This document shows positions 1 to 4,698 of a DNA stretch of 64,000 bases, piece by piece. Both the position numbers and the translations under genes were made by a program. Origin of the DNA: Idiomarina aquatica (GTDB lineage Bacteria > Pseudomonadota > Gammaproteobacteria > Enterobacterales > Alteromonadaceae); NCBI RefSeq assembly GCF_004362895.1, contig NZ_SNXI01000006.1, positions 1 to 64,000 on the forward strand. The letters are read 5' to 3'. Positions within the stretch are counted from its first letter, which is position 1; every line of letters begins with the position of its first letter. The notes under the pieces were generated by a model that worked only from the letters and a program-made list of their open reading frames with translations, had not been told where the DNA came from and did no database searches.

Positions 1-69
1 ATCGGGGATCGGCGTCAAGAGGTAATCGGTAAATTGGCGATCAATCGCTCATTTATTGGACAGTTCTAA
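1..69 (+). other. Possible 3' end of an unidentified plus-strand gene
   Basis: Frame 1 is open from the window edge for 22 codons and stops at TAA 67-69, so any gene here begins outside the window. Its stop interlocks with the TAG of the convergent protease gene (66-68 on the minus strand). I do not recognise the C-terminal residues (they end SFIGQF). The frame is short enough to be open by chance, so this is only a candidate. Confidence 0.25.
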
Positions 70-2435
70 ATCCGAATATTGGTGCGGAATAACGGGTATA
101 CCGCAATAGCGTCTCGACTTGCCAACTCCGCTGCGCTGCCCTTCCAAGTATCCGAATGTAAAGAGCCTTTATGTCGATTCTTTTTGCCAATCACCCAGTT
201 CGAGTCATTGTCATTTCTATTTGTGTGTTCGTCATCATCTCTGGCCGCCGCATTGATTCTGGCACGGAAATCTACCTCACTTTCTAAAGGGCGTTTCACG
301 TCAAAGCGAAGACCATGAGACTCATACCGATAGCGTGAGGTAACTCCACGAGCCGAGGGGTTAGGCTCAATAAAATACGACAATGTTACACGCATTTCCA
401 CGGAAGTTTCGCCAAGTGCTTCGAGCTCTTGTAGGGGCCAAGGCAGATTGTGAAGTTTCATATCACGGAGCTGAGGTTCTTTTCCCTTTTCGCGTTTGAA
501 CGGATTTAAAAACTCTTCACAGATCATGGTTAGTGAATTATCTGTGCTCCATATGGCTCGTTCGATGCTCGGCTCACCAAATCCGCAATGTCTTACTAAT
601 TCTGTTGTCTGTGCCTTGGTCGGCTCTCCTTTAGCTGGAAGAAACATGCGTTTCATGGCGTCCGTCCACTGTGCTGAGTGTACTATCAACCCTCGAATAC
701 TCTCACACCATAGTTCGGGATATCTTGCCATCAACTCGGCAGCCATTTTTGCGCAAAGAGCTGAAGCTGCGCTTGTTGCATTGCTCGTAGTAAACATACG
801 CTCGGCTGGATTCAAATGAGTAGTGAGCAGGCTCAGGCTCCTCATCCAAGCTGCACCAATACCATCTTGGGCAACATTGCCACCTTCAAACACTACATCT
901 GGTTTGAGTGGCCAATGAGACTGCCACGTCTGTGATGTCGTACTAAATGGACTTAATCCGCCTAATTCTGCAATTGGTGTATAATGTTGGGTATCAGCTT
1001 CAGTAATTCGTGTAAGGTTAGTCATTGCTCCGACGGTTAGCGCATTCCATGCTTGTGCAGGATCGTGGATACCGTCGGTTGCATTGCTGTGTGGATATTC
1101 CATCCAGGCATTGGCATCGTTGATATTGCCAGCAGATATAACAAATAGCCTTGGACTCTCACTTTGTTCATCAGCATCGTATGCAAGTCGATCAATAGTA
1201 GCTGACCAGGCAGAGGGACGGCCTCTGTCCCGATTGTCTCTCGCTGTAATAGCCATACTGTAAACTCGTTTACGATGTGGCGCAGCTATGGTTGTTCGAT
1301 AGACGGCCTCTGATGTCAGGTATCCGTGTAACTGAGCATCTCCGCCATTAGCACCGTCCTGCGGTATAAGTTTAACTGATTCTAGACGATGTGATACGCC
1401 GACAGGCGAGTTGGTTTCAAGCACTTCCGACAGATTTCCAAGTACAGCAAGCCCGGCCATTTCCGTGCCGTGCCCCTCGATATCGTTTACTCCCCATGCG
1501 GGATCAACGCTATGCTTATCTTCATTTGAAATGAGTTCTTTTAACAAGGGGTGGCCATTGTTTACGCCAGTATCAAATAAGCACACATACGGCACATCTT
1601 GGTCTGGCATTATTAAACGCTCCCTCAGATCATCTACCCACTGTGGCTGCTCATCAGGTGCTAAGTCATCAAAAAATTCTGCTGTTTCTTTCGCTCGACG
1701 TAATTCTGCAATGCTGTTTAAAGTCATTACCGAGCGTTTCATTTGCCCTACAGAACCATAAACTAGTAATACAGAACGTTCGGGAAAGTATAGCTCGCCA
1801 GGCGCAAGGCGAAAGCCGAGCCCCTCCGCCATTTCTCTAAATTGATCAACCACACCAATACGATCGTCTCGTATAGGCAGCCAGACCTCCCACCAAAGGT
1901 GTTCTTCGTCATCTGTTGGCATGGAGTCGGAAGAGTCTGTCCACAATGCGTGTATTGTTGCCGCGCGAATCTCATAAATTGCGTTCAGGAGTTTACTATT
2001 AGCCGGGCCACTTTTTTTATCATTGCTTTCATCTAAATAAGCAGTAATGAGTTTCTCAAACACTTCGAGTTTACCATCAGGCACAAATACGGTCGCAAAG
2101 GTTCTATTAACGTCGTGGCGGACATTTCGCAGTTCGATTCCTGAGCGCTCTCTGGCTAAAGACTCAAAAGCCAACTCAACATCAGGGAAGCTCTCAAACT
2201 CAATTTGTAAGCCAAAACCTTCCTCAACACCAGCCAGCCTTTGCTGAGCTGCTGCATCATTCAAAACTGATGTTAATTGCTTAATTTTATTCAGCAGCGC
2301 GCCACCATGTGCGTTTCTATCTCTATCGGGTATGACTTTGCCACTACCGCCTCTAGGTGGTGAAGTAAAACGCTCTGGCTGTGCGCTGTTTTGAAAAATA
2401 AAATGCTGGTGATTATTTGGTTCCTTACCTGCCAT
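66..2435 (-). CDS. ietS: Subtilisin-like (S8) serine protease of an IetAS-type system
   Basis: A 789-residue protein with a subtilase domain at about residues 275-600. The catalytic triad is visible: Asp288 in FDTGVN, His322 in GHGTEMAG and Ser555 in SNATSAAS, with oxyanion Asn437 in SAGN. The 270 residues before it and the roughly 190 after it match no domain I recognise. There is no signal peptide, so it should act in the cytoplasm, unusual for a subtilase. It lies 15 bases downstream of an AAA ATPase gene on the same strand. This two-gene pairing is that of IetA/IetS, first described as a plasmid-stabilising toxin-antitoxin pair on an Agrobacterium Ti plasmid and later shown to act against phage. 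In that view the protease is the effector and the ATPase its regulator. The protease assignment is very safe; the system name rests on pairing and architecture. Confidence 0.85.
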   Translation of the reverse strand: MAGKEPNNHQHFIFQNSAQPERFTSPPRGGSGKVIPDRDRNAHGGALLNKIKQLTSVLNDAAAQQRLAGVEEGFGLQIEFESFPDVELAFESLARERSGIELRNVRHDVNRTFATVFVPDGKLEVFEKLITAYLDESNDKKSGPANSKLLNAIYEIRAATIHALWTDSSDSMPTDDEEHLWWEVWLPIRDDRIGVVDQFREMAEGLGFRLAPGELYFPERSVLLVYGSVGQMKRSVMTLNSIAELRRAKETAEFFDDLAPDEQPQWVDDLRERLIMPDQDVPYVCLFDTGVNNGHPLLKELISNEDKHSVDPAWGVNDIEGHGTEMAGLAVLGNLSEVLETNSPVGVSHRLESVKLIPQDGANGGDAQLHGYLTSEAVYRTTIAAPHRKRVYSMAITARDNRDRGRPSAWSATIDRLAYDADEQSESPRLFVISAGNINDANAWMEYPHSNATDGIHDPAQAWNALTVGAMTNLTRITEADTQHYTPIAELGGLSPFSTTSQTWQSHWPLKPDVVFEGGNVAQDGIGAAWMRSLSLLTTHLNPAERMFTTSNATSAASALCAKMAAELMARYPELWCESIRGLIVHSAQWTDAMKRMFLPAKGEPTKAQTTELVRHCGFGEPSIERAIWSTDNSLTMICEEFLNPFKREKGKEPQLRDMKLHNLPWPLQELEALGETSVEMRVTLSYFIEPNPSARGVTSRYRYESHGLRFDVKRPLESEVDFRARINAAARDDDEHTNRNDNDSNWVIGKKNRHKGSLHSDTWKGSAAELASRDAIAVYPLFRTNIRI

Positions 2436-2450
2436 GCAATGTCCCTATCG

Positions 2451-3446
2451 TTAACTGCCAGTACTTAACCGTTTAGAAAGTTTACAGCGCTCTTCCAGTG
2501 CATGCGAAATATCTTTTTCTGATACACTCTTTGCTCGTTCAATCAGTGCTGTTTTGAGTACTTCATCAGTTGAACGGGTTAGTTCGGCATAACTTAAGCC
2601 ATTGGCTTTGGCTGCCAACCTCTTCCATGAAATATTTTTGACTGACACGCGAGATAGGCGAGATTTGAGCACGTTAGCGATATGAACATCATCAGGTAGT
2701 TCATAGTGCAGCAAATCATCAAAGCGACGGAAAAGAGCATTATCCAGAATATCGGGGTGATTAGTGGCACCGATAATTATGCTGTGGGAATCGTCCTGTT
2801 CAATCATCTGTAAAAAGCTATTGAGGATGCGCCGAACTTCACCCACGTCGTTTGCTAACCCACGTTGAGAACCTATAGCGTCAAACTCATCAAAGAAATA
2901 TACCCCACGAGCCTGACGGGTGGACTCAAATATCTGTCGCAGCTTCGCAGCCGTTTCGCCCATAAACTTGGTAATTAACCCATCCAAACGCACCTGAAAC
3001 AACGGAAGTCCCAGTTCACCGGCGAGCACAGATGCTGTCATAGTTTTACCAGTTCCCGGAGGCCCGACTAATAAAAGCTTACGCCGAGGAGACAAACCGT
3101 GTGAAAGGATCTCGGCCGCATGGCGCTGTTCAAGAATGATGCGATTCAATTGCTGAGCCAGATCACTGCTGAGCACCATATCGCCCAAGCGAGCTTTAGG
3201 ATAACTAACGCTAAGCAGATTAGCCAACTCACCTCGTGGCTTGCTGATGGGCACTGTTTTCTTCTCTGACCCAATCACTCGACTAGCTTTGGCCTGATCT
3301 ACTAAAGTACGCAATTCTCCTGCAAGCTTGCCATGCCCTCTCTTAGCTTCATGCGCGGCCACCTGCATGGCGACTGAATAGAAACGGCTGTCGTCACCCT
3401 CCAAATGTGATTGAAGCAACGCTTTTAGTTGATTTGCATTGGCCAT
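2451..3446 (-). CDS. ietA: AAA ATPase of an IetAS-type system
   Basis: A 331-residue single-domain AAA ATPase. Walker A is GPPGTGKT at residues 128-135, Walker B ends in FFDEFD with Asp186/Glu187, sensor 1 Asn229 is in GATNHPD, and the arginine-finger pair is Arg240/Arg241. The fold resembles FtsH/spastin-like AAA modules. The N-terminal 90 residues are probably helical and could bind a partner. A strong GGAGG precedes the ATG. As first gene of the pair it probably controls or delivers substrates to the downstream S8 protease; in the Agrobacterium ietAS pair the ATPase partner is the antidote. Both active sites are intact, so the system looks functional. It lies in an apparent insertion beside a truncated transporter. 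Confidence 0.85.
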   Translation of the reverse strand: MANANQLKALLQSHLEGDDSRFYSVAMQVAAHEAKRGHGKLAGELRTLVDQAKASRVIGSEKKTVPISKPRGELANLLSVSYPKARLGDMVLSSDLAQQLNRIILEQRHAAEILSHGLSPRRKLLLVGPPGTGKTMTASVLAGELGLPLFQVRLDGLITKFMGETAAKLRQIFESTRQARGVYFFDEFDAIGSQRGLANDVGEVRRILNSFLQMIEQDDSHSIIIGATNHPDILDNALFRRFDDLLHYELPDDVHIANVLKSRLSRVSVKNISWKRLAAKANGLSYAELTRSTDEVLKTALIERAKSVSEKDISHALEERCKLSKRLSTGS

Positions 3447-3472
3447 AAAGTGATCCTCCCAAATGTGGAGTC

Positions 3473-3478
3473 ATTGTA
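3473..3478 (-). promoter_or_regulatory. Candidate -10 box for ietAS
   Basis: TACAAT on the minus strand, about 27 bases before the ietA start codon, differs from the sigma-70 consensus at one base. No good -35 hexamer lies 17 bases upstream. It is the only obvious promoter element between ietA and the truncated transporter gene. Confidence 0.35.
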
Positions 3479-3522
3479 CCTTGTCACGCGAGTAATCACG
3501 ACCAAAAACATCAAGTAACCAC

Positions 3523-4698
3523 CTAGGCTTCAAAACTCCGCTTACAATCTGACTTCCCGGGGCTTTTAATCTTGTCTACGACTTGTTTCCCAGCTTTTCC
3601 TGATTCTATATACGAGCCAATAAGGCGCGAGTAGAACCAGCATAAGCCTGATACTTGCACAAAGCAGATACGAGCAACAAACACGGCCATTAATGGTGTA
3701 TAACCAATAAACCAGGCAAAGAAAAATACTGTCCACCATTGCATCCACCAATCCGGAGCAGTATTTGTAGTCATCGTCGCCATAGCAAAGAACGAGCCAA
3801 GATATCTGCCCATGCCCTGTAAATAACTGTCTGCCAGGAACAGTGTTGGCCCAAATACGATAATCACAGCGGCAATAGCGAGTGCTAAAAACACGTTCAT
3901 TCGACTTAAAAACTGAATGCCTTTGTGCAGTCCGGTTAACGCTGAGGTCATATAAATCGCCGCCAGACATAACAAAATAGTCAGCTGCAGGGCAAAGCCA
4001 TCCGTTGCGCCAAACAACTCACTCAAGCCAAAGCTCACCTGCGTTGCCAGAAAACCAATAGGACCGACTGTTCCTGCAACCACTGCAATCACGCAGCAAG
4101 CATCAACAATACTACCTAACGCACCTTTTAAAACGCGCTCTCCCAACACCGGATACAACAATGTCCGCGGCTGCAGCGGCTTACCTTTAACATAGTGGGC
4201 GTAGGACAATACAATCGCAGACAATGAGCCCAGCACGGCCCAGGCCAAAAACCCCCAATGCATAAAACTCTGCGCCAAAGCGGGCGCTATTGCTTCAGCA
4301 CTTCCCCCATCGGCATCTGATGCCGGCGGACTGACCAAAAAGTGATAGACCGGTTCTCCTGCTGCGAAAAATACACCACCACCTGCAAGTAAGGTACACA
4401 AGATCATAGACAGCCAACGAAATGTGGTTATCTCCGGCTTATCAAGGGAGCCTATTCGTGCTTGCCCATAACGACTCATGGCCGTCGCGATCGCAATAAA
4501 AAAAGTAAGTATCAGCAGAACCTGGAAAAACGAGCCAAAATATTTGGCAGTCCAGGCAAAACCGCTGGCAATAGCGCTTGCCGTTAGCTCTATATCCCAA
4601 AGCGACAGGCCTAAAAACAAAACAATAAATCCCATTGTTAAGACGAGAACAATAGGGTCTCCGAAGCGTTTTTCCTGATTTACGTTCGCTTTATTCAT
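3523..4698 (-). pseudogene. Truncated BCCT-family (betaine/choline/carnitine) transporter
   Basis: Residues 1-344 are a good BCCT transporter: repeated membrane helices, a substrate-loop segment with AGEPVYHF, and the tryptophan-rich DWWMQWW followed by GYTPLMAVFVARI. BCCT proteins are usually at least 500 residues with 12 helices. Here similarity stops right after FVARI (DNA position about 3667), and 47 unrelated, charged residues run to a stop at 3523. The last helices are therefore missing and transport is unlikely. The ietAS genes start on the other side of the break, so the transporter was probably cut when that segment arrived or through a later deletion. It lies 35 bases after orn on the same strand. 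Confidence 0.8.

What the first reader, a model, noticed from the sequence alone, without database searches (positions are those of the whole stretch)
66..3446. Intact IetAS-type defence pair
An S8 protease with a full triad lies 15 bases after an AAA ATPase with all core motifs. The combination matches IetAS, known for plasmid stabilisation and anti-phage activity. The protease has no signal peptide, so it would act in the cytoplasm. Its 270-residue N-terminal and 190-residue C-terminal regions match no domain I know and could hold sensing or substrate choice.
Basis: partly seen in the sequence, partly recalled or inferred. Interest (0 to 1): 0.7.

Follow-up and report, generated by a model that had tools for sequence, protein, structure and literature searches.

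The report
Truncated toxin-protease defence gene pair
A bacterium carries a known kind of two-gene phage-defence and plasmid-stability module that entered a transporter gene, but its protein-cutting half has lost its conserved tail to a repeated, mobile-looking sequence and is probably no longer working.

Summary
PADLOC's IetA and IetS models hit them (254 and 128 bits); both stay far below NCBI's equivalog cut-offs, so they are divergent members. "Intact" is wrong. Window 1-94 is a repeat that also ends two other contigs. The IetS frame runs into it: homology ends at residue 781, then an 8-residue foreign tail. Of 78 homologues not cut by a contig end, 77 continue for 42-57 residues and one for 20. 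The lost part holds an invariant GWW (76 of 76) and a confidently modelled strand and was found nowhere else in the assembly. The pair sits in a broken BCCT transporter gene that is whole in 4 of 18 congeners; none of the 18 has the pair. Relatives lie on plasmids, viral contigs and, in 28 of 80 loci, near restriction-modification genes. Best reading: a recently acquired IetAS module whose toxin was truncated, with its ATPase still whole. Ordinary, with one correction that matters.

The parts
2451..3446 (-). ietA-like AAA+ ATPase, 331 aa, whole; predicted N-terminal three-helix region plus an AAA+ module of FtsH/PAN/p97 type; presumed antitoxin or regulator
   Evidence: 0 of 102 near-invariant positions changed; model mean pLDDT 79.6; Foldseek hits p97, FtsH, PAN
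66..2435 (-). ietS-like S8 protease, 789 aa, catalytic residues whole (D288, H322, N437, S555), C-terminally truncated after residue 781
1..94 (.). end of a repeat (insertion-sequence-like by inference; no transposase seen) at the contig edge; supplies the last 8 codons and the stop of the truncated ietS
   Evidence: identical at C22:1-94 and C18:49218-49311; ietS DNA homology to 6 relatives stops at window 93-94
3447..3665 (-). upstream region of the module; the part next to ietA (to 3480-3530) is shared with four close relatives; no second copy in this genome; runs up to the break in the BCCT gene
   Evidence: the promoter scan found no sigma-70-like site
3666..4698 (-). 5' part of a BCCT transporter gene (residues 1-345), interrupted; the ORF continues with foreign codons to 3523
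   Evidence: the 3' part lies at the end of contig C25 (locus L043) beside two tRNA-Gly genes

Best explanation
This is a horizontally acquired IetAS-family module (AAA+ ATPase antitoxin/regulator plus cytoplasmic subtilase toxin/effector) that landed in a BCCT transporter gene and was then damaged. A repeated, insertion-sequence-like element cut the 3' end of ietS, removing about 50 conserved residues, including an invariant GWW motif and a predicted strand of the C-terminal beta-rich domain. In whole relatives the most likely mode of action is this: a subtilase with a prodomain-like N-terminal region, a catalytic core and a C-terminal beta-rich domain is held in check by, or fed by, an FtsH/p97-type AAA+ ring. 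Loss of the ATPase (plasmid loss) or phage infection frees the protease, which damages the cell. In this strain the protease is probably unfolded or inactive and the ATPase an orphan. Shown here: gene identity, truncation, disrupted transporter, mobile and defence contexts of relatives. Shown in print for relatives: subtilase toxic, ATPase neutralises. Inferred: the mechanism, the trigger, and loss of function.
For: Family: PADLOC IetA 253.9 and IetS 127.9 bits; IetA directly upstream on the same strand in 75 of 80 homologous loci. Truncation: of 78 homologues not cut by a contig end 77 have 42-57 more residues, one has 20; all 25 listed of 483 matching plasmid records stop at query residue 781; the repeat at window 1-94 occurs at 3 contig ends; DNA homology stops at window 93-94; the lost segment was not found elsewhere in the assembly. 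Insertion: BCCT whole (511-525 aa frames, 83-87% identity) in 4 of 18 congeners, with synteny from C25 to C6; pair in 1 of 19 genus genomes. Function of relatives: SgiAT and Mycoplasma TA132/133 work as toxin-antitoxin (PMC5006074, PMC8562856; passages read).
Against: The catalytic core is unchanged: of 174 near-invariant IetS positions scored, the 6 that differ all lie in the lost end, so residual activity is possible. One homologue (L110) is also short, by about 30 residues. The junction lies at a contig edge, so an assembly error or mixed population is not fully excluded. No structure was made of the truncated protein. The repeat is called IS-like only from copy number and contig ends; no transposase was found.
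Confidence: 0.8

Rival explanations
1. The pair is still a working toxin-antitoxin or defence system; the lost C-terminal piece is dispensable.
For: Triad and ATPase motifs are invariant; no other decay at near-invariant positions; homologue L110 also lacks about 30 of the C-terminal residues.
Against: The lost segment is as conserved as the protease domain (mean majority frequency 0.70 against 0.71), holds an invariant GWW in 76 of 76, and contains a strand modelled at block pLDDT 93.
Confidence: 0.15
2. The truncation is an artefact of the draft assembly: the contig was extended into a wrong repeat copy.
For: The junction is at base 1-94 of a contig in a 63-contig assembly, and repeats are where assemblers fail.
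Against: Three contigs share the same repeat end and diverge at nearly the same point, the usual picture of a true repeat boundary; ietS homology ends where the repeat begins; the conserved C-terminal piece was not found in the rest of the assembly, although a very short contig could have been dropped.
Confidence: 0.1
3. It is a housekeeping AAA+/protease pair and not a defence or stability module.
For: FtsH/PAN/p97-type ATPases are quality-control machines (fold match; function recalled).
Against: Patchy: 9 of 295 genomes of the order match, its own included and two of the nine only weakly, and 1 of 19 of the genus; relatives on 483 plasmid records, 339 typed conjugative, and at 47 viral-contig loci; 28 of 80 loci near restriction-modification genes.
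Confidence: 0.03

Closest known systems
IetAS (pTiC58 toxin-antitoxin; anti-phage pair in PADLOC/NCBIfam as IetA/IetS or IteA/IteS)
   Same: Same two protein families, order (ATPase then S8 protease), strand and close spacing; PADLOC models hit.
   Different: Far below NCBI's equivalog cut-offs (IteS 82.8 of 900 bits, IteA 206.4 of 510); truncation cannot explain the low IteA score. IetS lacks its conserved C-terminus. The original 2009 paper was not held and is cited through PMC8562856 and PMC5006074; the anti-phage test itself is recalled and carried by the model names.
SgiAT of Salmonella Genomic Island 1
   Same: AAA-ATPase antitoxin plus subtilisin-like toxin stabilising a mobile element; SgiA 50% and SgiT 36% identical to IetA and IetS of pTiC58 (PMC5006074, passages read).
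   Different: SgiAT is whole and on a mobilisable island; here the module is in a chromosomal transporter gene and broken. Sequences were not compared directly.
[quoted passage not shown]
   Same: Same pair type; the protease is toxic in E. coli and fully neutralised by the ATPase (PMC8562856, passages read).
   Different: Working pair of a 757-aa toxin and a 353-aa antitoxin; authors doubt a plasmid role. Sequences were not compared directly.
Full-length close relatives: Zhongshania marina L072, Alcanivoracaceae MAG L073, Lacimicrobium L098, Rheinheimera MAG L147, viral contig L160
   Same: 79-83% identical IetS up to window residue 781, with IetA adjacent.
   Different: All five are 833 aa with the C-terminal segment; L073 and L098 sit inside type I restriction-modification operons, L160 between a phage methyltransferase and AbiE plus lysis and terminase genes.

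Membership tests
IetAS | Adjacent co-directional AAA+ ATPase and S8 protease genes | tested here: met
   15-base gap; same arrangement in 75 of 80 homologous loci
IetAS | Both proteins hit IetA and IetS profiles of a defence library | tested here: met
   PADLOC PDLC02196 253.9 bits, PDLC02198 127.9 bits; full-length relatives score alike, 113-141 bits for IetS (4 tested)
IetAS (NCBI anti-phage equivalog IteA/IteS) | Scores over NCBIfam equivalog cut-offs | tested here: not met
   IteS 82.8 of 900, IteA 206.4 of 510; so not filed as an equivalog of the tested pair
IetAS | Complete catalytic machinery in both proteins | tested here: met
   D288, H322, N437, S555; Walker A/B and arginines
IetAS | Full-length IetS with conserved C-terminal segment | tested here: not met
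   about 50 residues missing, including GWW. The locus is therefore filed as a damaged member by descent, not as a working system
IetAS | Anti-phage or plasmid-stabilising activity | not testable with these tools
   needs bench work

The most novel reading that the evidence does not exclude
The broken toxin with a whole ATPase is not just decay: the orphan IetA could protect the cell against IetS-type killing by incoming plasmids, islands or phages that carry the full pair, acting as an anti-addiction module and making the loss of IetS advantageous.
Probability: 0.1. Interest if true: 0.5.

Novelty: new member of a known kind. Interest (0 to 1): 0.25.

Why it matters
Automatic profile scans would count this locus as a working IetAS system; it should be counted as damaged. 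The comparison points to a conserved C-terminal segment of IetS (GWW plus a terminal strand) as a candidate essential part or ATPase contact. It also shows relatives nested inside type I and type III-like restriction-modification operons and on viral contigs, settings in which the unknown trigger of IetAS can be sought.

Tried and rejected
Housekeeping protease reading: rejected on distribution. Duplication of the two N-terminal beta-alpha-beta-beta-alpha-beta-like blocks of IetS: profile-profile comparison gave 16-21% probability with about half a block aligned, so they are described by secondary-structure order only, and 'prodomain-like' is inference. IS5/IS903 identity of the repeat ending contig C25: its end looks like that family (recalled), a 77% match was found on one Shewanella plasmid, but the ORF remnant beside it matched no Pfam family, so the name is unproven. 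The repeat at window 1-94 had no match on plasmids and none in the 18 congeners. A sigma-70 promoter scan upstream of ietA found nothing, although a TACAAT-like stretch is shared with relatives by eye. Literature: 'IetAS' gave 23 papers, several of them unrelated words; further searches (one search found none, one search listed 10 of 17) showed, apart from the two toxin-antitoxin papers cited, no title or abstract start describing how IetAS works. Only listings and the passages named were read.

Neighbour ORFs were called mechanically; in 5 of 80 loci no ietA was called next to ietS, and in 4 of these a long minus-strand ORF in that place probably masked it. 6 of the 123 immediate neighbours (loci L122, L126, L127, same context as L121) were dropped before the PADLOC and Pfam tallies of 117. 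L119, L136 (contig-cut), L127 and L149 were left out of the 77-row IetS alignment A4. The IetA alignment A5 holds 53 rows: the window plus 52 of 67 length-filtered homologues. The PADLOC control on 48 other window genes gave at most one gene per family among the 25 families shown of 29. The missing 254-262 bases of the BCCT gene are read from local alignment ends.

Full report
What is there. Two minus-strand genes, 15 bases apart, sit at the very start of the window: a 331-aa AAA+ ATPase (2451-3446) and a 789-aa S8 protease (66-2435). Window base 1 is the first base of contig C6 of a 63-contig, 2.95-Mb draft genome. PADLOC names them IetA (253.9 bits) and IetS (127.9 bits). Pfam's strong hits are AAA (110.9 bits) and Peptidase_S8 (197.2 bits). 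NCBI's equivalog models for the tested anti-phage pair hit but far below cut-off (IteS 82.8 of 900, IteA 206.4 of 510). So this is a divergent branch of the IetAS family; four full-length relatives score PADLOC's best IetS model alike (113-141 bits). Catalytic residues D288, H322, N437 and S555 are invariant in 77 of 77 aligned IetS proteins. The IetA P-loop, Walker B and arginine positions are invariant in 53 of 53.

The protease gene is not intact. The first 94 bases of the window are identical to the ends of two other contigs, C22 and C18, and have no match in the 18 congeners searched. DNA similarity of ietS to six relatives stops at window 93-94, where this repeat starts. At protein level, homology ends at residue 781, followed by an 8-residue tail and a stop that lie in the repeat. 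Of 80 relatives from genome contigs, two are cut by their contig end. Of the other 78, 77 go on for 42-57 residues beyond the aligned part and one (L110) for 20. The 25 plasmid hits listed of 483 all stop at query residue 781. The missing stretch carries a GWW motif present in 76 of 76 other aligned sequences, and its mean conservation (0.70) matches that of the protease domain (0.71). A profile of it finds only the remaining 18-residue stub in the assembly. Of 174 near-invariant IetS positions scored, the 6 that differ in the window lie in the missing end; in IetA 0 of 102 differ. So the damage looks recent. That the repeat is an insertion sequence is inference; no transposase was seen.

Where it sits. 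Directly upstream (3666-4698) is the first part, residues 1-345, of a BCCT transporter. Four of 18 congeners carry this BCCT gene whole (frames of 511-525 aa, 83-87% identity), next to the oligoribonuclease gene on one side and, past tRNA-Gly genes and other ORFs, a histone-deacetylase-like gene on the other (gene names by eye). The 3' part of the gene lies at the end of contig C25, next to two tRNA-Gly genes, followed by 95 bases of a different repeat found at 7 places, its own included. Between the two halves 254-262 bases of the gene are missing relative to the four congeners (local alignment ends). The simplest reading is that the module entered the BCCT gene with a small deletion and that at least two different repeated elements now flank or cut it; the gap between the contigs hides the rest. 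No other genome of the genus has the pair: the only strong match among 19 is its own; eight others show weak, short hits (E 4.7e-5 or worse) that I take for other subtilases. In the order, 9 of 295 genomes match: its own, five nearly full-length, one fragment and two weak. G+C of the first 4 kb is like the rest of the window.

What the relatives say about function. The closest IetS proteins (79-83%) come from other genera (Zhongshania, Lacimicrobium, a Rheinheimera MAG, an Alcanivoracaceae MAG), so the module moves between genera. Relatives occur on 483 of 72,556 plasmid records, 339 of them typed conjugative, on 2 of 50,697 phage records and at 47 loci of IMG/VR. One viral contig (L160) has an IetS 80% identical to the window's over 783 columns, placed between a phage DNA methyltransferase and an AbiEii/AbiEi pair, with endolysin, spanin, HNH and terminase genes following. 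Among the 80 genomic loci, blastp clusters of neighbours, with one or more members of each identified by Pfam (membership checked), show: type III-like methyltransferase in 17, ResIII-type protein in 12, UvrD-type helicase in 13, HsdM in 6, HsdR in 7 plus 3. In all, 28 of 80 loci have at least one restriction-modification gene within the fetched flank, 21 of the 49 loci with at least 3 kb on each side. In L073, L074 and L098 the pair stands between hsdR/hsdS-side genes and hsdM. In L076, L093 and L097 it stands between a Mod-type methyltransferase and a UvrD-type helicase. In 117 immediate neighbours PADLOC's mad2 model hits 14, and most of the 25 families shown (of 388) are methyltransferases; Pfam counts N6_N4_Mtase 7, N6_Mtase 5, UvrD 5, phage integrase 4. 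In 48 other genes of the window PADLOC gives at most one gene per family shown. The other loci have varied neighbours. The sample is the best-scoring part, not random.

Likely mechanism. Published relatives behave as toxin (protease) and antitoxin (ATPase): SgiAT of SGI1 (PMC5006074, passages) and the Mycoplasma pair, in which the protease cuts E. coli counts by 3 to 5 logs and the ATPase neutralises it fully (PMC8562856, passages). The AlphaFold2 model of a full-length relative, L072 (mean pLDDT 83.1), has two beta-alpha-beta-beta-alpha-beta-like blocks at 75-158 and 179-247, the subtilase core at about 284-625 and a beta-rich C-terminal part at 636-810. Its best PDB matches are ProN-Tk-SP, KP-43 and SubHal (E 6.7e-19 to 2.8e-15, TM-score by query length 0.31-0.36, by target 0.48-0.65), proteases recalled to have a prodomain and/or a C-terminal jelly roll; the search gives no aligned ranges, so which domains match is inference. 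By sequence the profile matches only protease domains of solved subtilisins. IetA models as an N-terminal three-helix region plus an FtsH/PAN/p97-type AAA+ module. I infer a two-part AAA+ protease in which the ring restrains or feeds a cytoplasmic subtilase, freed when the ATPase is lost or when a phage interferes. The window protein lacks the last strand (801-810 of L072, block pLDDT 93) and the invariant GWW, and is probably non-functional; this is inference, as no model of the truncated protein and no bench data exist.

Verdict. The locus is a damaged member of a known kind. The conserved C-terminal segment and the nesting of relatives in restriction-modification operons are the two points worth carrying forward. 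Apart from the two toxin-antitoxin papers cited, the listings showed me no paper on how IetAS works, but that library lacks most subscription journals.

Noticed in passing
L076, L093, L097 (also L087, L092, L099, L100): Recurrent operon in relatives: ResIII-type protein, type III-like methyltransferase, ietA, ietS, UvrD-type helicase; ietAS looks like a standing module of a restriction-modification-like system (methyltransferase in 17 of 80 loci, helicase in 13).
   Followed up: partly
L073 3776-10547, L074, L098: ietAS sits inside type I restriction-modification operons, together with a SIR2-like gene in L073 (Pfam SIR2_2) and, in L098, a 945-aa gene that looks PHP-like by eye.
   Followed up: partly
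L160 3619-14499: Viral contig (a prophage by inference) with a DNA methyltransferase, ietAS and an AbiEii/AbiEi pair side by side before the lysis and terminase genes.
   Followed up: partly
window 1-94 and contigs C22, C18: The three copies of this repeat end abut similar bases (TATACC- or CATACC-like), hinting at target preference of the element.
   Followed up: no
L043 15502-15596: The repeat ending contig C25 inside the BCCT gene (7 places in the genome) has an end that resembles IS5/IS903 elements (recalled, unproven).
   Followed up: partly
L049 9406-10353: In another genome of the order only a C-terminal ietS fragment was matched, among genes that look Rhs-like by eye: perhaps a second decayed copy.
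   Followed up: no
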